Part shown: positions 21,044 to 64,000 of the stretch, in pieces
Layout: every line of letters starts with the position of its first letter
Position numbering within the stretch: position 1 is the stretch's first letter
Assembly: GCF_027947535.2 (NCBI RefSeq)
Contig: NZ_JAAGKO020000005.1
Location: 186,001 to 250,000 of the forward strand
Length of the DNA stretch: 64,000 nt
From: Streptantibioticus silvisoli
GTDB taxonomy: Bacteria; Actinomycetota; Actinomycetes; Streptomycetales; Streptomycetaceae
Reading direction: 5' to 3'
Position numbers and translations under genes: made by a program
The notes under the pieces: model-generated
Told to the model about the DNA's origin: nothing
Database searches by the model: none
What the model saw: only the letters and a program-made list of their open reading frames with translations

Positions 21044-21404
21044 GCCCGGACCGGGCGTATCCGCGACCGAGGCAACGACGGCCTCACGGCCCCCGCCGGG
21101 CGCACGCGTTCGCGACGGCCGCCGCCACGGCATGGCCGGCCGTGGCCTCTGCGGCGTCCACGGCAGCCTGCGACGCGAGGTGATCATCGGCTGAGCCCCG
21201 GCCGGGGACGCCGGCGGGGGCCGGCTGGTGTGCGGGCCCGCCACCCGCCCGTCTCCTCGCTGCGGCCACCCGCGCCCACGGGGTACCCGCCGTCCGGGCG
21301 ACGCCGGCCGGCCCGCGCGGCGTGGCGGAGCCGGCGGCCCGTGGCACACCCCTGTACTGATCACGGCCGCCGGGCCCGCCGGGGGCTGCCGCGCGGGAGT
21401 GATC
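21044..21404. other. Intergenic stretch before the hyp operon
   Basis: No gene is recognised. It contains the hairpins at 21044-21056 (GCCCGG-A-CCGGGC) and 21125-21145, and should hold the hypA promoter, possibly around the TGTACTGATCA segment near 21353; I cannot assign boxes. Confidence 0.4.
21125..21145 (+). terminator. Hairpin downstream of sugar porter
   Basis: Perfect 7-bp stem CCACGGC/GCCGTGG with a 7-nt loop, about 80 nt past the stop codon. Confidence 0.5.
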
Positions 21405-21782
21405 ATGCACGAGATGTCCATCGCGCTGGCCGTGGTCGACCAGATCGGGGACGCCGCACGCAGCGGCGGCCACGAGGCGGTCGAGACGGTGGTGCTGCGC
21501 GTCGGGGAACTCGCCGGTGTCGTCCCGGACGCCCTGCGGTTCTGCTTCGAGCTGGCCTGCGAGGACACGGTGCTCGCCGGCGCCGTACTGCTGACCGAAC
21601 CGGTACCGGGCCGGGCGCACTGCGCGCCGTGCGCCCGGGAGTGGGCGACCGGTCTGCCGCCGCACCTGTGCTGCCCCGCCTGCGAGGGACCGGCGGCCGG
21701 CCTGCTGTCCGGGCGGGAACTGGAGATCGCCGAGGTGCGGTGGGCGCCCGGCCGGCGTGCCGCCGCCCATGAGGAGGCCTGA
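21405..21782 (+). CDS. hypA: Hydrogenase nickel-insertion protein HypA
   Basis: Delivers nickel with HypB to the large subunit of [NiFe] hydrogenase. The 125-residue protein starts with the invariant nickel ligand motif MHEMS and has two Zn-binding CxxC pairs (HCAPC, CCPAC) at about residues 68 and 87. ATG at 21405 follows GGGAG by 6 nt. It is the first gene of hypABFCDE; hypB follows after 4 bp. Confidence 0.95.
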   Translation: MHEMSIALAVVDQIGDAARSGGHEAVETVVLRVGELAGVVPDALRFCFELACEDTVLAGAVLLTEPVPGRAHCAPCAREWATGLPPHLCCPACEGPAAGLLSGRELEIAEVRWAPGRRAAAHEEA

Positions 21783-21786
21783 CGCC

Positions 21787-22620
21787 ATGTGCCGTGCCAC
21801 CGACCTTCGAACGGCGGTGCTCGCCAAGAACGACCGGAGCGCCCACCGCCTGCGGGCCGAACTCGCCGCCCGCGCGACCGTCCTGGTCAACCTGCTGTCC
21901 AGCCCCGGCAGCGGCAAGACCGCCCTGCTGGAGGCCGAACTCGCCCTGGCCCGGCGGCGCGGCATCCCGGTCGCCGCCCTCACCGCGGACCTCGCCACCG
22001 AGAACGACGCGACCCGGCTGGCCCGGGCCGGCGTACCGGTCAAGCAGGTGCTGACCGACGGCCTGTGCCACCTGGAGTCCGACATGCTCCGGGACCACCT
22101 CGACGGCTGGCTGCCCGCCGGCACCCGGCTGCTGTTCGTGGAGAACGTCGGAAACCTCGTGTGCCCGGCGTCGTACGACCTCGGCGAGTCGCTGCGGGTG
22201 GTGCTCGCCTCCGTCACCGAGGGCGAGGACAAACCGCTGAAGTACCCGACCGCCTTCGGGCTCGCGCAGCTCGTCGTCGTGACCAAGCAGGACATCGCGG
22301 CCGCCGTCGAGTTCGACCAGGAGGCCTTCCTCACCAACGTCCGGCAGGTCAACCCCGGCGTCGAGGTGGTCCACACCTCGGCCCGCCGCGGCGAGGGCGT
22401 CGGCCGGCTCCTCGACCGGGCGCTCGCGGTGAGCCACGGCGCGGCCGTCCACCAACCCGTGATGGCCACGGCCCTCGACGGGCACGGTCACCGTGACGGG
22501 CGCGGCCACGGAGACGGGCACGGCCATGATCACGGGCATGATCACGACCACGACCACGACCACGGTGACGAGGACAGCCACGGCGACGGGCATCCCCTCA
22601 CCCACGAGCACGCGCACTGA
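21787..22620 (+). CDS. hypB: Hydrogenase nickel GTPase HypB with C-terminal His-rich tail
   Basis: SIMIBI-class GTPase that powers nickel insertion. The 277-residue protein has the P-loop SSPGSGKT near residue 38, the Cys-His metal site GLCHLE near 95, [15 protein letters not shown] near 120 and VVTKQD near 160. The last 40 residues are alternating His/Asp/Gly (for example [16 protein letters not shown]), a nickel-storage tail. In most HypB proteins such a tail is at the N-terminus, so its C-terminal position is unusual. AGGAGG lies 10 nt before the ATG. Confidence 0.95.
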
Positions 22621-22634
22621 TCGCGGGAAGGCCG

Positions 22635-25052
22635 ATGACCGCCGAGCCGACGCTCGCCCCTGCCGCCGCCGTGCGCCGCCGCGTCGTGGTGCGCGGCGTG
22701 GTGCAGGGGGTCGGATTCCGCCCGTTCGTCCACGCGCTGGCCCACCGGCTGAAGCTGTCCGGGTACGTGACGAACACCGGCGAGGGCGTGGTCGCCGAGG
22801 TCGAGGGCGCGCCGGCGGCCGTCACATCCTTCTGCGGGCTGATCGCGGCGCAGGCCCCGCCGCTGGCCGTGGTGCAGTCGGTGGACCACCGGCCCCTCGA
22901 CGTGCGGGGCGTCAGCGGCTTCAGCATCGTGCCGTCCCGCGCGGACGGCCCCCGGCGCACCCTCGTCCCGCCGGACACCGCCACCTGCGCCGACTGCCTG
23001 GCCGAACTGCGCGACCCCGCCGACCGGCGCCACCGGCACCCCTTCATCACCTGCACCCACTGCGGACCGCGCTTCACCATCGTCACCGGACTGCCGTACG
23101 ACCGCGCCAACACCACCATGGCCGGCTTCGCGATGTGCCCGCGCTGCGAACGGGAGTACACCGACCCCGCCGACCGGCGCTTCCACGCCCAGCCCGTCGC
23201 CTGCCACGACTGCGGCCCGAAGCTGCGACTGCTGCTGGCGCCGGCCCCGGACACCGCCGCCCCCGCGGACGTCACCGCCGCGCCGCGGCCGTACGCCGGG
23301 GGCGGCGCCGACCCGGTGGCCGCCGCACGCCTGCTGCTGGCGCGCGGTGCGATCATCGCCGTCAAGGGACTCGGCGGCTACCACCTGGCGTGCGACGCGG
23401 CGAACGCCGACAGCGTCCGGCGGCTGCGGCGGCGCAAGGCCCGCGGCGACAAGCCGTTCGCCCTCATGGCCGCCGACGTCGACGACATCGCACCGCTGGC
23501 GTACCTCGGCCCGGAAGAACGGCGGCTGCTCACCGGCCACCGCCGGCCCGTCGTGCTGCTGCGCCGCCGGCCCGCCACCGGCCCCGGGACACGGCGGGTG
23601 GCCGACGCCGTCGCCCCCGGCAGCCCGGACCTCGGCGTCATGCTGCCGTACACGCCGGTCCACCACCTGCTGCTGGGGCTGCCCGGTGATCCGCCCGGAC
23701 CGCGGCTGCTGGTGATGACCAGCGGCAACCGCGGCGGTGAGCCCATCGTCACCGACGACGCGGCGGCCCTGGAACGGCTGGCCGGCCTCGCGGACGCCTG
23801 GCTCACCCACGACCGGCCCATCCACGTCCCGTGCGACGACACGGTGGTCCGCATCTGCGACGGCGAGGAACTGCCGGTGCGGCGCTCGCGCGGCTACGCA
23901 CCCTTCCCGGTGCCGTTGCCCGTCGCGGTCACCCCGGTGCTGGCGGTCGGCGGCGACCTGAAGAACACCTTCTGCCTCGCCGAGGGCCGCCAGGCGTGGC
24001 CCTCGGCCCACGTCGGCGACATGGACGACCTGGCCACCCTCACCGCGTTCGGCCTGGCGGAACGGCAGCTGGAGAGCATCACCGGCGTGACGCCGCGCCT
24101 GCTGGCCGCCGACCGCCACCCCGGGTACCGCTCGTCGCGCTGGGCCGCGCGGCACGCCGCCGGGCGCCCGGTACGGCACGTGCAGCACCATCACGCGCAC
24201 ATCGCCGCGGTCATGGCGGAGAACGGTCTCGACGGCGGCCGCCCGGTCATCGGCGTGGCCTTCGACGGGACCGGTTACGGCGACGACGGGGCCGTGTGGG
24301 GCGGGGAGTTCCTGCTCGCCGACTACGACGGCTACCGGCGCGCCGCCCACCTGGCCTACGTACCGCTGCCCGGCGGTGACGCCGCGGTCGAGCGCCCGTA
24401 CCGGATGGCCCTGTCCCACCTGCGGGCCGCCGGCCTGCCGTGGAGCGCGGACCTGCCGTGCGCCGCCGCCTGCCCGGAACCCGAACGCACCCTGCTGGCA
24501 CGCCAGTTGGACACCGGACTGAACTGTGTGCCGACCTCCAGCATGGGCCGGCTCTTCGACGCGGTCGCCTCGCTCGCCGGGGTCCGCCAGCACGCCGGCT
24601 ACGAGGCGCAGGCCGCGATCGAGCTGGAGGCCGCCGCGGCCGCCTTCCCCGGCGAACCGGACCACCCGTACGCCTTCGCCCCGCGTCCCGGAACCGCCGA
24701 CCGCGCCGACGGCCCCCTGATCCTCGACCCCGCCCCCGTGCTCGCCGCGATCGTGGCCGACCTGCGGTGCGGGACGCCGGTGCCGCTGGTCGCGGCCCGG
24801 TTCCACGCGGCGGTGGCCGCCGAGGTCCGCCGCACCTGCCGGACGCTGCGGGACCGGTGGGACGTGCGGACCGCCGCCCTGACCGGCGGCGTCTTCGCCA
24901 ACACCCTGCTGTCGACGGCCTGCGCGCGGGGCCTGCGCGAGGACGGCTTCACCGTGCTGCGCCACCGCCTGGTGCCCCCCAACGACGGCGGGCTCGCCCT
25001 GGGCCAGGCCGTCGTCGCGGCCCGCCGGCGGCCCGACCCCGCCGACGCCTGA
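22635..25052 (+). CDS. hypF: Carbamoyltransferase HypF
   Basis: Makes thiocarbamate on HypE from carbamoyl phosphate, the source of the cyanide ligands of [NiFe] hydrogenase. The 805-residue protein shows the domains in order: acylphosphatase ([15 protein letters not shown] near residue 18), two zinc fingers (CADC..CTHC and CPRC..CHDC, about 115-195), YrdC-like ([16 protein letters not shown] near 240) and Kae1-like carbamoyltransferase with the metal site [11 protein letters not shown] near 520. The length is normal. It starts 14 bp after hypB. Confidence 0.96.
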
Positions 25053-25148
25053 AGGCGTCAACTCCGCACATCCGCACCGTAGTCCGTGCCTCAGCCCACC
25101 CCCCTTACGCCCGCCCCTTACGTCCACGCCCGAGACGAGGAGAACGAC

Positions 25149-25577
25149 ATGTGCCTGGCGGTGCCCGGCAAAGTCCTGGAGATCGAGGAACGCGACGGTA
25201 CGCGGATGGCGACCGTCGACTTCGGCGGCGTCGTGAAGGAGGTCTGCCTGGAGTACCTGCCGGACCTGAAGGTCGGTGAGTACACCATCGTGCACGTCGG
25301 CTTCGCGTTGCAGCGGCTGGACGAGGAGTCCGCCCGGCAGACGCTCGCCCTGTTCGAGAGCCTCGGCCTGCTGGTGGAGGAGTTCGGCGACCCGTGGGAG
25401 GCCGCCGCCGGCGCGGCGCCCGAACGACCGGTGCCGGTACGGACCGCCGGGCAGCCGGGCGAACCGGTCGCCCCGCCGGGGCCCGAACCTGAACCCCAAC
25501 CGGGGCCGGGGCCGCTGTCCGTGCCGGAGCCGGTGCTCGCGGCCGGGCAGCAGGCCGTGGGGGAGGAGGGGCGGTGA
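25149..25577 (+). CDS. hypC: Hydrogenase maturation chaperone HypC with Pro/Glu-rich extension
   Basis: Small chaperone that carries the Fe(CN)2CO group with HypD. The 142-residue protein begins with the essential MCLAVPGKV (N-terminal Cys) and has the HypC core to about residue 90; the remaining 50 residues are a Pro/Glu/Gly-rich low-complexity extension not seen in the usual 75-100 residue HypC. ATG at 25149 follows GAGGAG by about 7 nt. Its TGA overlaps the GTG of hypD (GTGA). Confidence 0.93.
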
Positions 25578-26713
25578 AGTACATCGAGGAGTTCCAGGAC
25601 CCGCAGCTGGCCCGGCGCCTGCTGGACGAGATCCACGCCACCGTGACCCGGCCCTGGGCGCTGATGGAGGTGTGCGGCGGCCAGACCCACTCCATCATCC
25701 GGCACGGCATCGACCAACTCCTGCCCGAACAGCTTGAGTTGATCCACGGCCCCGGCTGCCCGGTGTGCGTGACCCCGCTGGAGATGATCGACAAGGCGCT
25801 GGAGATCGCCGCCCGGCCCGGCGTGATCTTCTGCTCGTTCGGCGACATGCTGCGGGTGCCCGGCACCGGCCGCGACCTGTTCCAGGTCCGGGCGGCCGGC
25901 GGCGACGTGCGGGTGGTCTACTCGCCGCTCGACGCGCTGCGCGTCGCCCAGGACAACCCGGGCTCCGAGGTCGTCTTCTTCGGCATCGGCTTCGAGACCA
26001 CCGCGCCGCCCAACGCCATGACGGTCCACCAGGCGAGCCGCCTGGGCATCCGCAACTTCAGCCTCCTGGTCTCGCACGTCCGCGTACCGCCGGCCATCGA
26101 GGCCATCATGCGGTCGCCGGACTGCCGGGTGGACGCCTTCCTCGCCGCCGGCCACGTGTGCAGCGTCATGGGCGTGGGGGAGTACCCCGCGCTGGCCGAC
26201 ACCTTCCGGGTGCCCATCGTCGTCACCGGGTTCGAGCCGCTGGACATCCTCGAAGGCGTGCGCCGCGCGGTGCGGCAGCTGGAGAACGGCGAACACCGGG
26301 TGGAGAACGGCTACGCCCGCGCGGTCCGCGACGAGGGCAACGCCGCCGCCAAGGAGATGATCGCCGACATCTTCGAGGTCACCGACCGCGCCTGGCGCGG
26401 CATCGGCGTCATCCCCGGCAGCGGCTGGCGACTGGCCCCCCGCTACCGCGAGTTCGACGCGGAAGACCGCTTCGACGTCGGTGACATCACCACCTCGGAG
26501 CCCGCCGAGTGCCGCAGCGGCGAAGTCCTCCAGGGCCTGCTGAAACCGCACCAGTGCGAAGCGTTCGGCACCACCTGCACCCCGCGCAACCCGCTCGGCG
26601 CGACCATGGTCTCCAGCGAGGGAGCCTGCGCCGCCTACTACCTCTACCGCCGGCTCGGCGGCACGCGCGCGACCGCGACATCCCCCACCGTGGAGGCGAC
26701 CCCCGTTGGCTGA
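25574..26713 (+). CDS. hypD: Hydrogenase maturation protein HypD
   Basis: [4Fe-4S] scaffold on which the Fe(CN)2CO unit is assembled. The 379-residue protein has CGGQTHS near residue 34, [10 protein letters not shown] near 60, GFETTAPP near 135, [11 protein letters not shown] near 215 and the C-terminal cysteine cluster [18 protein letters not shown] near 335. The GTG start overlaps the hypC stop; its own TGA overlaps the TTG start of hypE by 8 nt. Confidence 0.96.
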
Positions 26714-27812
26714 CACCACCGACCTGACCCGCCGGCCGGCCGTGACCCCCGCGCGGCACCGGCCGCCGGACTTCTCCGGCTGGACCTGCCCGGTCCCGCT
26801 GCGCGACCACCCGCACGTCGTCATGGGCCACGGCGGCGGGGGCGCGCTGTCCGCCGAACTCGTCGAGCACGTCTTCGCCCCGGCCTTCGGCGGGCCGGTG
26901 CTGTCGGCGCTCGGCGACTCCGCCACGGTCCGGCTGGGCGGCGCCCGGCTGGCCTTCTCCACCGACTCCTTCGTGGTGCGCCCGCTGTTCTTCCCCGGCG
27001 GCTGCATCGGCGACCTCGCGGTCAACGGCACGGTCAACGACCTGGCCATGAGCGGTGCCCGGGCCGCCTACCTGTCGTGCGGGTTCATCCTGGAGGAGGG
27101 CGTCGAGGTCGCCGCCGTCGCCCGGATCGCCGAGGCCCTCGGCGCCGCCGCCCGCACAGCCGGCGTCGAGGTGGCCACCGGGGACACCAAGGTGGTCGAG
27201 GCCGGCCACGGCGACGGCGTCTACATCAACACCTCCGGGATCGGCCTGATCCCCGACGGCGTCGACATCCGACCGCAACGGGCCGTCCCCGGCGACGTCG
27301 TCATCGTCAGCGGCCCCGTCGGCGAGCACGGCGTGGCCATCATGAGCGTCCGCGAGGGCCTGGAGTTCGGCGCCGCCGTCGAGAGCGACTGCGCCGCCCT
27401 CGGCGGACTCGTCGATGCCATGCTCGCGGCCACCCGCGACCTGCACGTCCTGCGCGACCCGACCCGCGGCGGCCTGGCCGCGGCCCTCAACGAGATCGCC
27501 GCCGCCGCGTCGGTCGGCGTCGTCGTCCAGGAACGCGCCGTCCCGGTCCCGCCGGCCGTGGCCAACGCCTGCGCCATCCTCGGGCTCGACCCCTGGTACG
27601 TGGCCAACGAGGGCAAACTCGTCGCCTTCGTCCCCCGCGAACACGCCGACGCCGTCCTCGCCGCGATGCGCGCCCACCCGCTCGGCGCCGGCGCCGCGGT
27701 CATCGGCGAATGCGTCGAGGCCCACCCCGGCATGGTCGTCGCCCGCACCGCCCTGGGCGGCACCCGGATCGTCGACCTGCCCCTGGGCGAGCAACTGCCG
27801 CGCATCTGCTGA
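26706..27812 (+). CDS. hypE: Carbamoyl-dehydratase HypE
   Basis: ATP-dependent enzyme (PurM/SelD fold) that turns the C-terminal thiocarbamate into thiocyanate for iron cyanation. The 368-residue protein has [13 protein letters not shown] near residue 41, [15 protein letters not shown] near 80, [10 protein letters not shown] near 155, [14 protein letters not shown] near 250 and the invariant C-terminal Pro-Arg-Ile-Cys. The start is a rare TTG, supported by GGAGG about 9 nt upstream and by the overlap with hypD. Confidence 0.95.
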
Positions 27813-32774: not shown

Positions 32775-33334
32775 GCGGCCCATCCTGGCACAGCGGGCCC
32801 GTTCCCCCGGTGGACCCGGCGCCGGACGAGGAGCCGTCCGACGGGAGGCGGCCCCCGCCGAGCAGAACGTCGAAATGCCCGACCGCCCGACGCGACGGCC
32901 TCCCTCGCTTTCTCATGACGGACAGTCCCGCTGAAATCCGCCAAGTGCGGCATTTCGCTGTCGCCGATCGAATACGCGTGCCCCCGTATGTATGGACCAG
33001 GGCCGCCGGGGGGACTTCTTGCAAAGGTCCGACTCGTCACCATCGGCGAGCGGAAAATCGTCAGCAACAAGACGAAATGACAGAAACCGAAGCGCGGGAA
33101 CTAGGGTTTTTCCTATGGTGCGTTGCCCGGGTGTCGTGGTGCACTCAGTGCCGCAAGTCTTCGGGGAGAAAACCGCATGGAAACACGGTAATGCTTCATT
33201 GCGGTTTCACAGGGCACGCGCGCCCTCGCTCATAGCTGCGCCACGGAGGATCGTCCCGGCTGTCAGGGTCAAGGCGATCGCGGCATCTGAGAGCGGCCGA
33301 ACCATTCAGCGTCACCAAGACAGGAGCGGCTCAT
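32775..33334. other. AT-richer intergenic leader of the hydrolase gene
   Basis: No gene is recognised. The right half is clearly less GC-rich than the genome average and includes a promoter at 33077-33107, a perfect 11-bp palindrome GCACTCAGTGC (33141-33151) and an 8-bp stem AAACCGCA/TGCGGTTT (33170-33207). If the promoter is right, the mRNA leader is about 220 nt long and could carry regulation. Confidence 0.45.
33077..33107 (+). promoter_or_regulatory. Promoter of the dimethylargininase-like gene
   Basis: -35 ATGACA (33077-33082) and -10 TAGGGT (33102-33107) with a 19-bp spacer, close to the vegetative Streptomyces consensus. It would give a leader of about 220 nt before the ATG at 33335. 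Confidence 0.5.
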
Positions 33335-34288
33335 ATGTCACACGAGGTTGTCGTAACGACGGGGGACGAGCGGGCGAGTGCCGGTGTGCTCACCACTGCG
33401 GCCATGGATTCGCCTGCCTTCCTCGTGGCACCGCCCCTGTCGATGGCGGCTGACGTTCCGAACAACGTGTACATGACCGAGATGACCGACGAGCAGCGTG
33501 CGGTCGACCGTCCCAAGGCGATCCGCCAGTTCGCCTCGTTCGTCCAGGAACTCAGCCGGGACGGCTCGCTCGTCTACTCCCTGCCCTCCCCCCTGCCGCT
33601 TCAGGACCAGCCCTACACCAGCAACGTCGGCATCGTGCTGCCGCACCGTCCCGACACGGCGATCGTCGCCAACTTCTCCACCGAGCCGCGCCGCGGTGAG
33701 GAGAAGGTCGCCGGTCCCTTCCTCGAAGCGCTCGGCTACAACGTGGTCCACCCCCCGGAGCTGTTCGAGGGCGAGGCCGACATGAAGTTCCTCGGCGGCA
33801 ACACCTACGCCTGCGCGTACGGCATGCGCACCTCGCACGAGTTCGCGGACTGGTTCGCGGAGTCGTTCGAGGCCGACGTCATCCCGGTCGAGATGACCGA
33901 CCCGCACCTGTACCACCTCGACTGCGTGATGCTTCCCCTGCCGGGCGGCCGTATCGGCGTCTGCTCCGAGCGGCTCGACCCCGTGGTGCTCAAGCGCCTG
34001 GAAGCCGACTACGACGTCATGGACGTGCCGCTCTCCGCACCGGTGGGCGCTCTCAACTGCGTCGTCTCCGGCCGTCGGCTGCTGAGCAACTGGGCCCTCA
34101 GCGAGGACACTTCGCACACCTCGAAGGAGGACCAGCTGGTCCGTATCCACCAGGTGGAGCGGCTTGCCGAATTCGCCGGTCTCGAGCCGGTGTTCCTCGA
34201 CATGAGCGAGTTCCTCAAGTCCGGTGCCGCGCTCTCGTGCATGGCCATGCACCTGAACCGCAGCAGCTACGACCTCGCCTCCTCCTGA
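33335..34288 (+). CDS. Dimethylargininase/amidinohydrolase-like protein
   Basis: Guanidine-modifying enzyme-superfamily hydrolase of 317 residues, the size of a dimethylarginine hydrolase rather than arginine deiminase. The fold signatures are MKFLGGNTYACAYGMRTSHE near residue 150, the catalytic His in DPHLYHLDCVMLPLPGG near 190 and the nucleophile Cys near the C-terminus in GAALSCMAMHLNR (about residue 303). The family turns guanidino groups into citrulline-type ureas or transfers them. ATG at 33335 follows AGGAG by 8 nt. The next gene is a PLP decarboxylase and then an exporter. Codon use is less GC-biased than its neighbours. Confidence 0.82.
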   Translation: MSHEVVVTTGDERASAGVLTTAAMDSPAFLVAPPLSMAADVPNNVYMTEMTDEQRAVDRPKAIRQFASFVQELSRDGSLVYSLPSPLPLQDQPYTSNVGIVLPHRPDTAIVANFSTEPRRGEEKVAGPFLEALGYNVVHPPELFEGEADMKFLGGNTYACAYGMRTSHEFADWFAESFEADVIPVEMTDPHLYHLDCVMLPLPGGRIGVCSERLDPVVLKRLEADYDVMDVPLSAPVGALNCVVSGRRLLSNWALSEDTSHTSKEDQLVRIHQVERLAEFAGLEPVFLDMSEFLKSGAALSCMAMHLNRSSYDLASS

Positions 34289-34400
34289 ACCCGGTGCGAG
34301 CGCGCTGACGCGTCGCGGGCAGGCCGGAATCGCTGCCTTCGTGCTCCAGGGTGTGACGGGTCCGTTGTCGAGCTGTCCGTGTGACTGAGACCGGAGAGTA

Positions 34401-35615
34401 GTGAGCGGTATGGGAGACATGACAGCCCGCCGGGAATTGACGACCTATCCTCCGTCGAACACGGAGGACAGCGAGGCGATGGCTCGCATCCGGGAGTTCC
34501 TCGACCGTGTGGCGCCGCCGACGCCGTGCCTGGTCATCGACCTGCAAACGGTCCGCGACCGTTATCTGGAACTGACCGAGGCGCTGCCCGGGGCCCGGGC
34601 GTTCTACGCGGTCAAGGCGAATCCCGCGCCCGGGGTGCTGCGTTTGCTGGCGACCCTGGGGGCGGGCTTCGATGTGGCCAGCATTCCGGAGATCGAACTG
34701 TGTCTGGCCGAGGGCGCGCGGCCGGAGGACATCTCCTACGGAAACACGATCAAGAAGCGTGCCGATGTCGCGAAGGCATTCGCGCTCGGTGTCCGGAAAT
34801 TCACCACGGACAGCATGGCCGACCTGGAGAACCTGGCCGAATGCGCACCGGGTTCCTCAGTGTTCTGTCGCGTCGCGCTGAACGACACCGGTGCCGTGTT
34901 CGAGTTCGGTTCGAAATTCGGCTGTGCTTCGGACATGGTCGTCTCCCTTTTGGCGCGCACCGGTGAACTGGGACTGCACCCGGCGGGTGTCTCCTTCCAC
35001 GTCGGTTCGCAGCAACTGGATCCGGCCGCGTGGGACGCCGGAATCGCCGAGGCGGCCGAAATAGCCGCCAAGCTGGCGAGCGACGGAATTCAATTGCCGC
35101 TGCTCAATATAGGTGGAGGATTCCCGGGGAATTACACCGTCGTGTCGCCTCCGACCACCCACTATGCGACGGTGATCTCCGATTCGCTGGCCCGGCACTT
35201 CGGGGCCGCCGGACTTCCGCTGCCGGAGGTCATGCTGGAACCGGGCCGGCTGCTCGTGGCGGACGCGGGTCTGCTGCGTACGGAGGTCGTGCTGGTCTCC
35301 CGTAAATCCACTGCGGACGACCATCGCTGGGTGTATCTCGACAGTGGCCGCTACAACGGCATGGCGGACACCGAGAACGACTGGATCTATTTCCAGCTCA
35401 CCACCCCGCGGCGCGGCGGTGAGACCGGCCCGGTGATTCTCGCGGGACCGACGTGCGACGGTACCGACGTGTGGTACCACAACCGCATGTACGAACTCCC
35501 CCTGGAGCTTCGGGCCGGAGACCACGTCGACGTCCTGAGCGCCGGCGCGTATTCGACGAGTACCTCCTGCGCGGACTTCAACGGGTTCGCTCCGACGACG
35601 ACTCATTGCGTCTGA
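34401..35615 (+). CDS. Fold-III PLP decarboxylase (ornithine/arginine/DAP decarboxylase family)
   Basis: Alanine-racemase-fold decarboxylase of 404 residues. It has the PLP lysine in FYAVKANPAPGVL near residue 72, the substrate/PLP-binding SFHVGSQ near 197, GGGFPGNY near 237, EPGRLLVADAG near 289 and the second-subunit Cys-Asp in GPTCDGTDVW near 350. It lies 112 bp after the amidinohydrolase gene, so the pair could turn arginine-type substrates into amines. Third positions often carry A or T, unlike neighbours (34 G/C in the 60 bases 34741-34800), suggesting acquisition. GTG at 34401 has GGAG 4 nt upstream; ATG at 34410 is an alternative. Confidence 0.85.
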   Translation: MSGMGDMTARRELTTYPPSNTEDSEAMARIREFLDRVAPPTPCLVIDLQTVRDRYLELTEALPGARAFYAVKANPAPGVLRLLATLGAGFDVASIPEIELCLAEGARPEDISYGNTIKKRADVAKAFALGVRKFTTDSMADLENLAECAPGSSVFCRVALNDTGAVFEFGSKFGCASDMVVSLLARTGELGLHPAGVSFHVGSQQLDPAAWDAGIAEAAEIAAKLASDGIQLPLLNIGGGFPGNYTVVSPPTTHYATVISDSLARHFGAAGLPLPEVMLEPGRLLVADAGLLRTEVVLVSRKSTADDHRWVYLDSGRYNGMADTENDWIYFQLTTPRRGGETGPVILAGPTCDGTDVWYHNRMYELPLELRAGDHVDVLSAGAYSTSTSCADFNGFAPTTTHCV

Positions 35616-36033
35616 GTTCTCCCCGCGAGCCGGCCGCCGAGGTCTGCGAGTGCGGGACGAACAGCGGGAGTTGAGTCGGCCGGGACATCCGGACGGCCAC
35701 GCGGACCCCCACGGTGCGCACCGGGAGCGGACACTCACGGTGTGCGGCGGGAGTTGCTCCGCGTGGCCCCGGGCTGTCCCGGCCTTCGTCGGCGTACGGC
35801 GTTGCGACGGCGGCGAGTTGCCGCAAGGCAGCGCAGCACGCCGAGGGCGGCCCGGGACGCCGCGCTCACCGAGAAGCGGGGCGGTGCGCGCAGGCGGGCC
35901 GCTACGACAGCGCGCCATGGTCCTCGATCCCGGACGGGCAGCAGCCGGCCGGGTACGTCCGGCGCGGCGGTGACGTTCCGTCGGTCCCGCAGCCGGCCAT
36001 GACCTGGCATCACTCTTTCGGCAGGACGGACCA
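35616..36033. other. Intergenic stretch between decarboxylase and EamA genes
   Basis: GC content returns to the genome norm here. No gene or strong terminator is recognised; several open frames lack an SD. Confidence 0.4.
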
Positions 36034-36867
36034 ATGACCGCTTTTCTCGCGCTCCTGGCGTCGGTGCTCTGGGGCGCCACCGACTACGGCGGGGGCACGC
36101 TCTCGCGGCGTCTGCCGGTCACGGTGGCGCTGCTGGGCTCCCAGGTCACGGCGGTGGTCGTGCTGGGCGTCGGCCTGGGAGTCCCGGGGGTGCACGTCGG
36201 GTTCGGCGGCTACCTGGTCTACGGCGCCCTGGCCGGCCTGCTGGGAATGCTCGGCCTGTTCGCGTTCTACCAGGCCATGGCGACCGGTCCGATGTCCGTG
36301 GTGGCCCCGGTCTCCGCGTGCGGCACCGCGATCCCGGTCGTCTACGGGCTGCTCCGCGGCGAGCACGTCATGCCGGTCCAGGGCCTGGGCATCGCCGTCG
36401 CGTTCGTGGGCGTCATCCTCGTCTCCGGCCCGGAACTGCACGGCGGCGCCGGCGGCAGACGGACGGTCCTGTTGTCGCTGGGGGCCGCGGCCGGCTTCGG
36501 ATCGGTGTTCCTGTTCTCCGGACTCGGCGCACCGCACGGCGTGTACGGCACGATGCTGGCCGAACAGTTCGTCGGGCTCCTGCTCGTGCTCCCCGGCGCG
36601 TGGGCGAGGCGGGACCTGCGCGGCATCACGTGGGACCGGCGAACCGTGGCCCTCAGCGTCCTGGTGGGGTTCGGGGACCTCGCCGCGATCGCGTCGTACC
36701 TCGGCGCGGCGCGCGGCAGCCACCTCGCGGTGGTGTCGGTCCTCAGCTCGCTCTACCCGGTCGTGACCACCCTGCTGGCCCGGTACCTGCTCGCCGAACG
36801 CCTGCGGTCGATCCAGAACGCCGGAGTCGTGGCCGCCCTCGCCGGCATCGTGCTGATCAACCTGTAG
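36034..36867 (+). CDS. EamA/DMT family transporter
   Basis: Ten-helix drug/metabolite transporter of 277 residues made of two EamA repeats. The first repeat begins ALLASVLWGATDYGG and ends with AIPVVYGLLRGEH plus a helix ending in SGPEL; the second starts near residue 145 and ends SLYPVVTTLLARYLLAERL and AALAGIVLINL. Family members export amino acids, amines and metabolites. Placed after the hydrolase/decarboxylase pair it could export their product, but the 418-bp gap means it need not be in the same operon. Confidence 0.88.
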   Translation: MTAFLALLASVLWGATDYGGGTLSRRLPVTVALLGSQVTAVVVLGVGLGVPGVHVGFGGYLVYGALAGLLGMLGLFAFYQAMATGPMSVVAPVSACGTAIPVVYGLLRGEHVMPVQGLGIAVAFVGVILVSGPELHGGAGGRRTVLLSLGAAAGFGSVFLFSGLGAPHGVYGTMLAEQFVGLLLVLPGAWARRDLRGITWDRRTVALSVLVGFGDLAAIASYLGAARGSHLAVVSVLSSLYPVVTTLLARYLLAERLRSIQNAGVVAALAGIVLINL

Positions 36868-60278: not shown

Positions 60279-61766
60279 TCACCCGGCCGGCGGCACCGGT
60301 TCCGGCAGCACCGGCTCGCGCGGGTCGCCGTCGTCGAGGCCGTTCCCGGACGCGGCGTCGGCCGGGGCGGGGGCGGGGCGCAGGACGAGGGCGGCGGCCA
60401 CCCCGGCCAGCAGCCACGCGGCGGCGACGTAGGGGAAGCTGTCGTACGGGGGCCGGGGCGCCGGGTGGACGTTGGCGTACAGCACGTAGCCGATGAACAG
60501 CAACCCGGCGACGGGGATGGGCAGTTCGGCCGGCCGGGCGCGGCGCGGACCGGACAGGAAGAGGTACTTCACGGCGCCGACCAGCGTGAAGGCGTAGGCG
60601 AGCAGGAGCACCAGGGAGCCGATGGTGGCGCTCCAGAAGAAGATGTCGGTGGCGCTGGGGGTGGCGAACACGCGGGCGCCGGCCAGGCCGACGGCGACCG
60701 CGGCCAGCACGGTGGCCAGCGCCCGGGCCGGCACGCCGTCGGGACCGCGGACGTCGCCCAGCCGCGGGGAGATGAATCCGTCGCGTCCCATGGCGAACAG
60801 CAGCCGGGAGGCGCTGACGGCGCAGGCCAGCGCCGAGCCGAAGGCGCCCACCGCGGCGCACGCGGTGACCAGGTGGCCGACGCCCGGTGAGATGTACGCG
60901 CCGGCCAGGTCCCCGACCAGGGAGGACGAGTGCGTGAAGCGTGCGAGGCCGGCCGCGTCGGTGCCGTAGCCCAGGGTCTCGGCGGTGGTGACGAAGACGA
61001 AGAAGCCGCCTGCCAGCAGCACGGTCCCGGTCAGGGCGCGCGGGATCGCCCGTTCGGGGTCGCGGGTCTCCTCGCCCAGCGTCGACGCCGCCTCGAAACC
61101 GGCGAAGGACAGGAAGCCGAACGTCACGGCGGAGAACAGTGCGGGGGCCGCCGCGTGCGGTGAGGCCAGGGCGGACAGCGCCAGCCGCTGGTGGCCCGGT
61201 GCGCCGCCGGTAGCGACCTTGACGAGGACGACGGCGGCGACCGCGGTGAACAGCCCCATCGTGGCGAACTCCAGGGCCAGCAGGGCCCGGGTGGCCGCCC
61301 GTGCCGGGCGCGACGCCAGCCGGCTGATCCCGGCGAACGCCACCGTCGCGGGCACCAGCCAGTTGACGCCGGGCCACACCCCGGTCCCGCGCAGGAAGTC
61401 GCTGAGGAACACCGCTGACCCGGCGGTCGTGGTGACCGCGAAGGCCAGGTAGGTGCCCAGCAGCAGCCAGCCCGCCACGAAGCCGGCGCGGCGGCCGAAG
61501 ACCGCGCCGATCCACCCGTACAGCGACCCGGCGTGCGACATGTGCTGCGACATGCGGATGAAGCCGTGCGCCACCAGCAGCACGCCCACGGTCGACAGCA
61601 GGAACACCAGCGGCACCCCGGCGCCCACCCGGGCGGCCGGCTCCTGCGGGTTGAGGTTGGAGGCCATGCTCGGGCCGAGCAGCGCCACCGACAGGCCCAC
61701 CGCGCCCCAGGTCGACAGATTGCGCCGCAGGCGGTGGCCCGCCTCGGCCGGCTCGGGCTTGCTCAT
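60279..61766 (-). CDS. APC superfamily amino-acid/polyamine permease
   Basis: Cytoplasmic-membrane transporter of 495 residues with about twelve helices. The first helix region reads STWGAVGLSVALLGPSMASN; the family motif FAGFEAASTLGEETRDPERAIPRAL near residue 220 and RLLFAMGRDGFISPRLG near 330 are diagnostic of APC permeases. The C-terminal tail is acidic and Pro-rich. ATG at 61766 follows GAAGGAG by 4 nt. Its location beside the NRPS could mean supply of a precursor amino acid, but nothing proves a link. Confidence 0.92.
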   Translation of the reverse strand: MSKPEPAEAGHRLRRNLSTWGAVGLSVALLGPSMASNLNPQEPAARVGAGVPLVFLLSTVGVLLVAHGFIRMSQHMSHAGSLYGWIGAVFGRRAGFVAGWLLLGTYLAFAVTTTAGSAVFLSDFLRGTGVWPGVNWLVPATVAFAGISRLASRPARAATRALLALEFATMGLFTAVAAVVLVKVATGGAPGHQRLALSALASPHAAAPALFSAVTFGFLSFAGFEAASTLGEETRDPERAIPRALTGTVLLAGGFFVFVTTAETLGYGTDAAGLARFTHSSSLVGDLAGAYISPGVGHLVTACAAVGAFGSALACAVSASRLLFAMGRDGFISPRLGDVRGPDGVPARALATVLAAVAVGLAGARVFATPSATDIFFWSATIGSLVLLLAYAFTLVGAVKYLFLSGPRRARPAELPIPVAGLLFIGYVLYANVHPAPRPPYDSFPYVAAAWLLAGVAAALVLRPAPAPADAASGNGLDDGDPREPVLPEPVPPAG

Positions 61767-62157: not shown

Positions 62158-64000
62158 TCACCGGACCGGCGTGAGCGCCTCGGCCTCCTCCAGTGCCCAA
62201 TGCACCGCCCGCGTCCACAGCGCCCCGATCCGGGTCGCCGCGGCGTTGTCGAGCGCGCCCCGCGCGAAGTCCAGGGACCCGGTGAGCCCGGCCGGGGTGT
62301 CCGAGAGCTCGATGTGGAGCTCCAGACCGACCTCACCGCGCCACATCGGGACGTCCTGGACGTCGAGCCCTTCCAGCCGCCAGTTGGCGTCCACCCCGTC
62401 GCTGGAGTAGGTGAACAGCATCTGCCAGATCGGATTGCGCCTCGCCTGCGTGACGCTGTCGTCGCGGAACTGCGCGATGACGCGGTCGATGGGGAAGTCG
62501 CGGTAGGCCAGCGCGGCCCGGACCCCGTGCTTGCTGTCGGCGATCACGGTCGCCAGGTCCGCGTCCGCCGGGATACGGGAGCGCAGCGGCATGAGGTTCT
62601 GGAAGAAGCCGACCGCCTCGAAGTCCTCCACGGTGTTGCGGCTGTCGACCGGTACCAGCAGCGCGACGTCGTCCTGCCCGCCGTAGTGCTTCAGGGCGCG
62701 GAAGAACGTCGCGATCAGGAACTCGAACCGCGTGCACTTCAGCCGTCCGCACACCCGGCCGACGCGCTCCGGGGCGTCCGGTCCGAAGTCGAACCGGACG
62801 GTGTCGGCGGTGAAGGCCGCCGGGTCGGCGACGGGGTCCGGGCTGGGCAGGATCCGGGGCGGCGGGGGAGACGCGCAGGCGACCAGTTCCGGAATCTCCC
62901 GCGCCGGGGGGAACTCCTGCGCCAACCGGGCCGGATCGTACGGTACGGCCGCCGGCAGGCCGGCGCCGTCACCGCGGTACAGCACCGCCAACTCGCTCTG
63001 CAGCATGGCCTTCGACCGCTCGTCGACGGCGATGTGGTCGAGGACCAGCAGCAGGCTGAACAGGTCGGGGGCGTGCCGGTAGACCACGGCCCGGACCGTG
63101 CTGTGCCGGTCCGGATCGCAGAACCGGAGGATCTCCCGCTCGAACTCCTCCTGGACGAACGCCCGCAGCACCTCCTCGTCGCGCACGCCCGTGGTGGACC
63201 TGATCTCCACCGCGTCCGGCGCCGGCCGCTCGTGCTCCACCGCCATCAGCCGGTCGCCGTGGAAGGCGTAGGTCGTCCTGAGCATGGGGTGGCGGGCGAC
63301 CAGCTCGCGGAACGCGTGCTCCAGGCGCGGCAGGTCCAGCTCGCCGCGGATGCGCAGGTGGTTGGCGACCGTCTGGTGCGGCGGCCTGCCCTCGGCCTGC
63401 CGCATGCCGATGAGGCGCTGCTCGGCCAGGGACGCCGGCCGGATGCGCGCCGCACCGGGCCGGGTACGGGCGGTGTCGGCGCCGTCGCGCCGCGGGGCGG
63501 CGGTGGCGGGAGCGCCGCCGCGCGCCCGGTCGATCCCGCGGGCGGGGAACATCTCCCGCAGGCCCGCCACGTCGATCTCCAGCTTCGGCGTCCTGGGCAG
63601 CCGCTCCACCACGTCGATCCTGGTCGGCACCATGAACAGCGGCAGCGCGCCGGCCAGCCGGCGGCGGCACTCGCTCTTCGTCAGCTCCGCGGACTCGATC
63701 ACCACGCCGAGCGCGACCTCGCCGGTGCCGCTTTCGGCCGGGTAGACGTGGCAGTCGCCCACGCCGTCGATCCCGCGGACCGCGGCGGCCACCTCCGACA
63801 GGTCGACGCGGGCGCCGTTGATCTTGAACTGGGTGTCCTGCCGGCCGCTGTAGTGCAGCAGTCCGGCCTCGTCGACGTGGCCGTAGTCACCGGTGCGGTA
63901 GACGGTCCGCGTCGTCCCGCCCTCCTCCAGGGCGACGAACGCCGGCCGGCTCGCGTCCTGCCCGGACACGACCCGGGTGGTCTCGGCGGCGATTCCGCCG
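62158..64000 (-). CDS. NRPS, C-terminal part: adenylation tail plus condensation domain (5' end beyond the window)
   Basis: The visible 613 codons begin inside an adenylation domain: core A7/A8 as VYRTGDYGHVDE and YSGRQDTQFKINGARVDL, and the A10 lysine in PRTPKLEID. About 40 Pro/Arg/Ala residues follow, then a condensation domain from RPASLAEQRLIGMRQ to the end. Its active-site motif is LDHIAVDE in place of HHxxxDG, keeping the second His and Asp; VPVDSRNTVEDFEAVGFFQNLMPLR is the later core. No carrier-domain motif (LGGxS) is visible between A and C or after C, and there is no thioesterase. The GC-rich repeat array follows the stop. Confidence 0.88.
   Translation of the reverse strand, partial: GGIAAETTRVVSGQDASRPAFVALEEGGTTRTVYRTGDYGHVDEAGLLHYSGRQDTQFKINGARVDLSEVAAAVRGIDGVGDCHVYPAESGTGEVALGVVIESAELTKSECRRRLAGALPLFMVPTRIDVVERLPRTPKLEIDVAGLREMFPARGIDRARGGAPATAAPRRDGADTARTRPGAARIRPASLAEQRLIGMRQAEGRPPHQTVANHLRIRGELDLPRLEHAFRELVARHPMLRTTYAFHGDRLMAVEHERPAPDAVEIRSTTGVRDEEVLRAFVQEEFEREILRFCDPDRHSTVRAVVYRHAPDLFSLLLVLDHIAVDERSKAMLQSELAVLYRGDGAGLPAAVPYDPARLAQEFPPAREIPELVACASPPPPRILPSPDPVADPAAFTADTVRFDFGPDAPERVGRVCGRLKCTRFEFLIATFFRALKHYGGQDDVALLVPVDSRNTVEDFEAVGFFQNLMPLRSRIPADADLATVIADSKHGVRAALAYRDFPIDRVIAQFRDDSVTQARRNPIWQMLFTYSSDGVDANWRLEGLDVQDVPMWRGEVGLELHIELSDTPAGLTGSLDFARGALDNAAATRIGALWTRAVHWALEEAEALTPVR

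What the first reader, a model, noticed from the sequence alone, without database searches (positions are those of the whole stretch)
33077..36867. Guanidino-hydrolase plus PLP decarboxylase plus exporter: a possible unusual amine pathway
A dimethylargininase-sized hydrolase with Cys-His active site is followed by an ornithine/arginine-type decarboxylase and then an EamA exporter. The first two genes and their 220-nt leader are less GC-rich than the surroundings (34 of 60 bases in 34741-34800). An arginine-to-citrulline-to-amine route, or making and export of a guanidine-derived signal, is a reasonable hypothesis not matching any cluster I can name.
Basis: partly seen in the sequence, partly recalled or inferred. 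Interest (0 to 1): 0.65.

Follow-up and report, generated by a model that had tools for sequence, protein, structure and literature searches.

The report
Arginine-to-putrescine enzyme pair, widespread in phages
Two neighbouring Streptomyces-family genes look like a two-step pathway that strips arginine to ornithine and then to the diamine putrescine, and the same first enzyme travels with a decarboxylase in bacteria of many phyla and in many phages, a pairing I could not find described.

Summary
33335-34288 encodes an intact guanidino-modifying hydrolase, 34401-35615 an intact PLP decarboxylase, 36034-36867 an EamA transporter. The interpretation needs changing. The hydrolase is not dimethylargininase-like: its closest solved relatives are the cyanobacterial arginine dihydrolases ArgZ/AgrE, which make ornithine, not citrulline. 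The decarboxylase is 47% identical to Sinorhizobium meliloti Odc2, a characterised ornithine decarboxylase. Best reading: arginine -> ornithine -> putrescine (confidence 0.5; no assay). Among 80 genomic relatives of the hydrolase, 60 lie beside a phosphatidylserine-decarboxylase-like (pyruvoyl) gene and 4 (cyanobacteria) beside an ornithine-decarboxylase-like gene. In viral contigs, 79 of 80 have the pyruvoyl decarboxylase directly downstream, overlapping by about one base. Sequenced Campylobacter and Bacteroides phages carry both genes. The window version is a rare, divergent variant with a different decarboxylase. The EamA link is unproven: no relative shows it, and a 418-bp gap and a GC jump separate it. 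I found no description of the module in the papers held. Its wider form implies that phage 'phosphatidylserine decarboxylase' and 'amidinotransferase' genes are a polyamine-type pathway.

The parts
33000..33334 (+). AT-richer leader upstream of the pair (about 60% GC in a roughly 70% GC region)
   Evidence: no sigma-70-like promoter or convincing terminator found
33335..34288 (+). GME-superfamily hydrolase, ArgZ/AgrE-like subfamily (phrog_12759): predicted arginine dihydrolase
   Evidence: AlphaFold model pLDDT 90 with best PDB match ArgZ, Z 34.4, rmsd 1.9
33623..33625 (+). Asn97 codon, aligned with Asn71 of ArgZ; kept in 164 of 166 relatives
33767..33769 (+). Glu145 codon, catalytic triad, invariant in 166 of 166 relatives
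33914..33922 (+). His194-Leu-Asp196 codons: catalytic His, and the Asp that arginine deiminases have where dimethylargininases have Lys
   Evidence: rule from PMC11659421
34238..34240 (+). Cys302 codon, nucleophile
34401..35615 (+). Alanine-racemase-fold PLP decarboxylase, Odc2-like: predicted ornithine decarboxylase
   Evidence: 47% identical to S. meliloti odc2; tree
34614..34616 (+). Lys72 codon, PLP Schiff-base lysine (YAVKAN motif)
36034..36867 (+). EamA-family transporter; membership in the module not established
   Evidence: no EamA beside any relative; no close homologue in 199 other family genomes, one 65% paralogue in the same genome

Best explanation
The pair is a two-step route from L-arginine to putrescine. 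The first enzyme is an ArgZ-like arginine dihydrolase: Cys302 attacks the guanidinium carbon, and two rounds of hydrolysis release two ammonia and carbon dioxide and leave L-ornithine. The second is an Odc2-like PLP decarboxylase that converts ornithine to putrescine. The host has no detectable AdoMet decarboxylase or spermidine synthase N-domain, so putrescine, or something made from it, is probably the end product. Shown here: intact genes and active sites, sequence and fold affinity, and repeated linkage of this hydrolase subfamily to decarboxylases of at least two unrelated folds. Inferred: the substrates, the products and any export.
For: Profile search puts ArgZ/AgrE first by a wide margin (2.6e-32 against 0.012 for dimethylargininase). 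The fold search agrees: ArgZ Z 34.4, dimethylargininase 28, arginine deiminase 26.5, amidinotransferases about 24, agmatine deiminase 20. Triad Glu145/His194/Cys302, Asn97 (= ArgZ Asn71), Asp196, Asp91 and Arg119/Arg165 are all near-invariant. Asp91 and the two Arg fit a free alpha-amino acid substrate; Asp196 fits an unmethylated guanidine (PMC11659421). The decarboxylase's best solved match is a lysine/ornithine decarboxylase. It is 47% identical to S. meliloti Odc2, whose ODC activity is ten-fold its LDC activity and which makes about 90% of that cell's putrescine. Two further close relatives are fused to, or lie next to, spermidine-synthesis genes. Decarboxylase linkage recurs: 60 of 80 genomic loci with a pyruvoyl type, 4 cyanobacterial loci with a PLP type, 79 of 80 viral contigs; the same sets of sequenced phages hold both genes.
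Against: No assay. The hydrolase is only about 22-24% identical to ArgZ, far below the NCBIfam arginine dihydrolase cut-off (57 of 450 bits), and is a long-branch member of its own subfamily. Ordinary actinobacterial 'DDAH' proteins also have Asn at the ArgZ Asn71 position, so that residue alone does not prove dihydrolase chemistry. The decarboxylase has Ser where classical ornithine decarboxylases have Asp; Odc2 lacks it too, so this is neutral rather than fatal. Window linkage is a single genome (1 of 395 family genomes). Three cyanobacterial loci also carry an agmatine-deiminase-like gene that this route does not need.
Confidence: 0.5

Rival explanations
1. Deiminase route: the hydrolase stops at citrulline and the decarboxylase makes N-carbamoylputrescine, which is exported or hydrolysed.
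For: Same superfamily as arginine deiminases and dimethylargininases, with Asp196 in the deiminase-like state (PMC11659421). Ser in place of the classical ODC Asp could suit an uncharged side chain.
Against: Closest relatives by sequence and fold are dihydrolases. The cyanobacterial partner decarboxylases keep the diamine-binding Asp. Characterised Odc2 also lacks that Asp and still uses ornithine.
Confidence: 0.17
2. Amidinotransferase: the first enzyme moves the amidino group of arginine to an unknown acceptor, and the ornithine left over is decarboxylated; the product could be a guanidino metabolite.
For: Campylobacter phage relatives are annotated 'amidinotransferase'. Agmatine-deiminase-like genes accompany some relatives (L016-L018, L085).
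Against: The fold is closer to hydrolases than to amidinotransferases (Z 34 against 24). The triad acid is Glu in 166 of 166, whereas arginine:glycine amidinotransferase uses Asp (from memory).
Confidence: 0.12
3. Tailoring module of a secreted natural product: the substrate is a modified or carrier-bound arginine, and the amine is built into a larger exported molecule.
For: About 30 of 80 relatives have a MATE exporter gene and about 19 an ABC exporter gene nearby; TIGR01194 cyclic-peptide exporter in L018. A PapA5-like acyltransferase follows L015 and condensation-like proteins follow the Prevotella hydrolases. An exporter-family gene lies downstream in the window.
Against: No NRPS, PKS or ligase next to the window pair. 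Phage copies have only the two enzymes, inside the capsid gene region. Free amino acid binding residues are kept.
Confidence: 0.15
4. The two genes are neighbours by chance and act separately.
For: Only one genome with this exact arrangement; 112-bp gap between them.
Against: Hydrolase-decarboxylase adjacency recurs across many phyla and in phages, with different decarboxylase families.
Confidence: 0.05

Closest known systems
ArgZ (Sll1336) / AgrE (Alr4995) arginine dihydrolase, N-terminal domain
   Same: Best sequence-profile and fold match; same triad and Asn71 equivalent
   Different: 22-24% identity; stand-alone 317-aa protein without the ornithine cyclodeaminase domain; partner is a decarboxylase; below the NCBIfam cut-off
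Sinorhizobium meliloti Odc2 ornithine/lysine decarboxylase
   Same: 47% identical over 390 residues; same motifs, including absence of the classical ODC Asp
   Different: Its gene lies beside an N-acetyltransferase gene, not a guanidino hydrolase
Arginase + ODC and ADC + agmatinase / agmatine deiminase routes to putrescine
   Same: Same start and end compounds
   Different: Here the guanidino group would be removed by a metal-free cysteine hydrolase that yields ammonia and CO2 rather than urea, before decarboxylation
Phage-encoded polyamine enzymes: SpeD-derived pyruvoyl ODC/ADC, PLP ODC, arginase (PMC9992855; also PMC10407285)
   Same: Phages making polyamines; pyruvoyl-dependent decarboxylases
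   Different: Relatives found here pair the hydrolase with a phosphatidylserine-decarboxylase-family protein; 'phosphatidylserine' does not occur in either paper, nor 'dihydrolase' or 'amidinotransferase' in the former
Dimethylargininase (DDAH)
   Same: Same superfamily and size; Pfam DDAH_eukar hit
   Different: Asp instead of Lys at the position that accommodates the methylated guanidine; far below family cut-offs

Membership tests
Arginine dihydrolase (ArgZ/AgrE; NCBIfam NF052232) | Curated score cut-off of 450 bits | tested here: not met
   57.1 bits for the window protein, 85 for the best relative tested; so it is called ArgZ-like, not a member of that equivalog
Arginine dihydrolase (ArgZ/AgrE; NCBIfam NF052232) | Glu-His-Cys triad and Asn71 equivalent | tested here: met
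   Glu145, His194, Cys302, Asn97; kept in 166, 166, 162 and 164 of 166 relatives
Arginine dihydrolase (ArgZ/AgrE; NCBIfam NF052232) | Arginine to ornithine + 2 NH3 + CO2 | not testable with these tools
   needs a purified enzyme assay
Dimethylargininase (DDAH) | Lys at the position beside the catalytic His that accommodates methylated guanidine | tested here: not met
   Asp196, invariant in 166 of 166; rule from PMC11659421
Dimethylargininase (DDAH) | NCBIfam cut-offs (300 and 340 bits) | tested here: not met
   82.7 and 30.3 bits
Amidinotransferase | Asp in the catalytic triad and extra acceptor-binding elements | tested here: inconclusive
   triad acid is Glu and fold similarity is lower (Z about 24 against 34), but the Asp rule is from memory
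Alanine-racemase-fold ornithine/lysine decarboxylase | Both Orn_Arg_deC domains, PLP Lys, FHVGSQ, GGGFP, EPGR and GPTCD motifs | tested here: met
Alanine-racemase-fold ornithine/lysine decarboxylase | Asp that binds the distal amine (Asp332 in trypanosome ODC, numbering from memory) | tested here: not met
   Ser in P0002; but Ile in S. meliloti Odc2, a working ornithine decarboxylase, so it does not define the Odc2 branch
Alanine-racemase-fold ornithine/lysine decarboxylase | Ornithine decarboxylase activity | not testable with these tools
   needs an assay

The most novel reading that the evidence does not exclude
The window holds one variant of a general, undescribed arginine-to-diamine module: an ArgZ-like cysteine hydrolase plus an interchangeable decarboxylase. 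Across many bacterial phyla and in T4-like, Campylobacter and Bacteroides phages the decarboxylase is a phosphatidylserine-decarboxylase-family pyruvoyl enzyme that acts on a free amino acid (probably ornithine), so phage genes labelled 'phosphatidylserine decarboxylase' and 'amidinotransferase' are really a putrescine-making pair.
Probability: 0.42. Interest if true: 0.78.

Novelty: new variant of a known kind. Interest (0 to 1): 0.62.

Why it matters
If right, this is a route from arginine to putrescine that uses neither arginase nor agmatine, and it is carried by many phages next to their capsid genes, where a diamine could help neutralise packaged DNA or reshape host nitrogen use. It would also correct two current labels (phage 'phosphatidylserine decarboxylase' and 'amidinotransferase') and add a second fold of pyruvoyl amino-acid decarboxylase to phage polyamine metabolism. 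For the window organism, it predicts a simple testable phenotype: putrescine made from arginine, with ammonia released.

Tried and rejected
Dimethylargininase identity: rejected on score and on the Asp/Lys position. EamA as a conserved third member: no homologue beside any relative, 418-bp gap and GC jump; synteny could not test it because the genus has one held genome and no other family genome searched has a close homologue. Spirulina locus L020 (hydrolase followed by an aspartate-aminotransferase-fold decarboxylase) was first read as another decarboxylase class in the module, then discounted, because that cyanobacterial family is a widespread single-copy orphan of unknown function (PMC8503589). 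The single-protein viral scan found nothing; the alignment-based scan found many. Host spermidine genes: none found. Host PSD genes (C105, C42): one only weakly like the module type, neither beside a hydrolase. Plasmids: no close hydrolase relative. Phylogeny did not settle whether the window and cyanobacterial PLP pairings share an origin: the decarboxylases fall in different clades, but the window hydrolase is a long branch. The ArgZ and AgrE papers are not in the library. Paper searches for the pair found no description.

Full report
What is there. The window lies on contig C76 of an 8.7-Mb Streptomycetaceae genome, the only one held of its genus. Three + strand ORFs match the finding: hydrolase 33335-34288, decarboxylase 34401-35615, EamA 36034-36867. 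Both enzymes are intact. The leader and pair are AT-richer than their flanks, which, with rarity (1 of 395 family genomes), suggests acquisition by transfer; this is inference.

What the hydrolase is. Family scans give only weak DDAH and ArgZ scores; the NCBIfam ones are all below their cut-offs. A profile of 51 relatives matches ArgZ/AgrE at about 1e-32 and dimethylargininase only at 0.01. An AlphaFold model (mean pLDDT 90) matches ArgZ best (Z 34.4, rmsd 1.9 over 263 residues), then dimethylargininase (28), arginine deiminase (26.5), amidinotransferases (about 24) and agmatine deiminase (20). Across 166 relatives Glu145, His194, Asp196, Asp91, Arg119 and Asn241 are invariant, and Cys302, Asn97 and Arg165 nearly so. 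By the residue rules given in PMC11659421, Asp196 fits an unmethylated guanidine. Asp91 and Arg119/Arg165 fit an amino acid's amine and carboxylate; placing these three on the rule is my mapping. Asn97 aligns with ArgZ Asn71, whose Ser mutant was crystallised as a trapped covalent intermediate (title of 6juz). That Asn also occurs in ordinary actinobacterial 'DDAH' proteins. One protein annotated that way, Rv2323c of M. tuberculosis, is needed for growth on arginine in a bacterium that converts arginine to ornithine without a recognisable arginase (PMC4569260), which fits dihydrolase chemistry but does not prove it.

What the decarboxylase is. It has all alanine-racemase-fold motifs and a lysine/ornithine decarboxylase as best solved match. 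It is 47% identical to a gene annotated odc2 in S. meliloti. Odc2 of that species has ten-fold more ODC than LDC activity and makes about 90% of the putrescine (PMC10385936). I assume the annotated gene is that enzyme; I did not match locus tags. Both lack the Asp that classical ODCs use for the distal amine, so this absence is not evidence against ornithine. Two close actinobacterial relatives are fused to a spermidine synthase (L220) or lie next to a SpeD-SpeE fusion (L222). A caution: a different decarboxylase beside SpeD/SpeE proved to be lysine-specific (PMC8503589).

Is the pair meaningful? An alignment-based scan of GTDB species genomes returned 80 relatives of the hydrolase. Sixty have a phosphatidylserine-decarboxylase-family gene (PF02666, about 240 aa) adjacent, median gap 33 bp in the commoner order. 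Four cyanobacteria (L015-L018) instead have an ODC-like PLP decarboxylase adjacent. Hosts include Verrucomicrobiota, Acidobacteriota, Bacteroidota, Pseudomonadota, Actinomycetota, Gemmatimonadota and others. The PSD-like proteins keep the Asp, His and Gly-Ser expected of self-processing pyruvoyl enzymes (Asp49, His100, Gly201-Ser202 in L023). In 80 viral contigs, 79 have hydrolase then PSD-like gene with a median 1-base overlap; the 80th ends right after the hydrolase. Many of these contigs carry what look like T4-like capsid and PhoH genes around the pair (my reading). Among sequenced phages, 39 Campylobacter and 6 Bacteroides phage records have each gene; in Campylobacter phages the two genes lie far apart yet still co-occur. 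Phage contigs are related to one another, so they count as few events; the bacterial loci have varied surroundings and count for more.

Interpretation. One hydrolase subfamily is tied to decarboxylases of at least two unrelated folds (pyruvoyl PSD-like and PLP alanine-racemase fold), the latter from two separate clades. This makes 'hydrolase product is a decarboxylase substrate' the economical reading. Because the PLP partners belong to ornithine decarboxylase families, ornithine is the likeliest shared intermediate. By extension the PSD-like partner is probably an amino-acid decarboxylase, not a phospholipid enzyme; this is inference. The host lacks detectable SpeD and SpeE N-domain, so putrescine or a derivative is the likely end point.

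Export. MATE genes (about 30 loci) and ABC exporter genes (about 19) often sit beside the bacterial modules.

Known or new. Paper searches for the combination gave nothing. The survey of viral polyamine enzymes does not mention it. A marine virus survey reads phage pssA/psd as phospholipid metabolism (PMC11360552), and an early Campylobacter phage paper notes a putative glycine amidinotransferase (PMC2853527). The library is incomplete, so prior description elsewhere cannot be excluded. The components are known kinds; the pairing and its spread are the new part.

Noticed in passing
L095-L174 (viral contigs), L013, L011: Hydrolase and PSD-like decarboxylase form a tightly coupled gene pair in T4-like phages (79 of 80 contigs); Campylobacter Fletchervirus and Bacteroides phages also carry both. 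Both PHROG families (12759, 12670) are listed as unknown function.
   Followed up: partly
L016-L018, L085: An agmatine-deiminase-like gene (PF04371, far below the agmatine deiminase cut-off) and an ABC exporter gene accompany the hydrolase-decarboxylase pair in three cyanobacteria and in Longimycelium.
   Followed up: partly
L052, L064, L074, L082: In Mesorhizobium and Rhodospirillaceae the hydrolase has no decarboxylase beside it but lies near a large protein that looks like a class III nucleotide cyclase and, in most, a conserved ~120-aa protein of unknown function.
   Followed up: no
L015:11429-12694; L079:5989-7218; L087:10870-12132: PapA5-like or condensation-domain-like proteins directly follow the hydrolase, suggesting that the amine may be acylated in some lineages.
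   Followed up: no
L020:11054-12550: An aspartate-aminotransferase-fold Orn/Lys/Arg decarboxylase homologue follows the hydrolase in Spirulina; it may be only the cyanobacterial orphan family.
   Followed up: partly
window 21228-27812: A run of ORFs that look like [NiFe]-hydrogenase maturation genes (hypA/B/F/C/D/E-like), judged from the translations only.
   Followed up: no
window 62158-63969: ORF resembling an NRPS-type adenylation domain at the window edge, beside an amino-acid-permease-like ORF (60279-61766).
   Followed up: no
L002 (G000:C43:236343-237119): The genome also has an ordinary actinobacterial 'DDAH'-like protein, 27-30% identical to the window hydrolase.
   Followed up: partly
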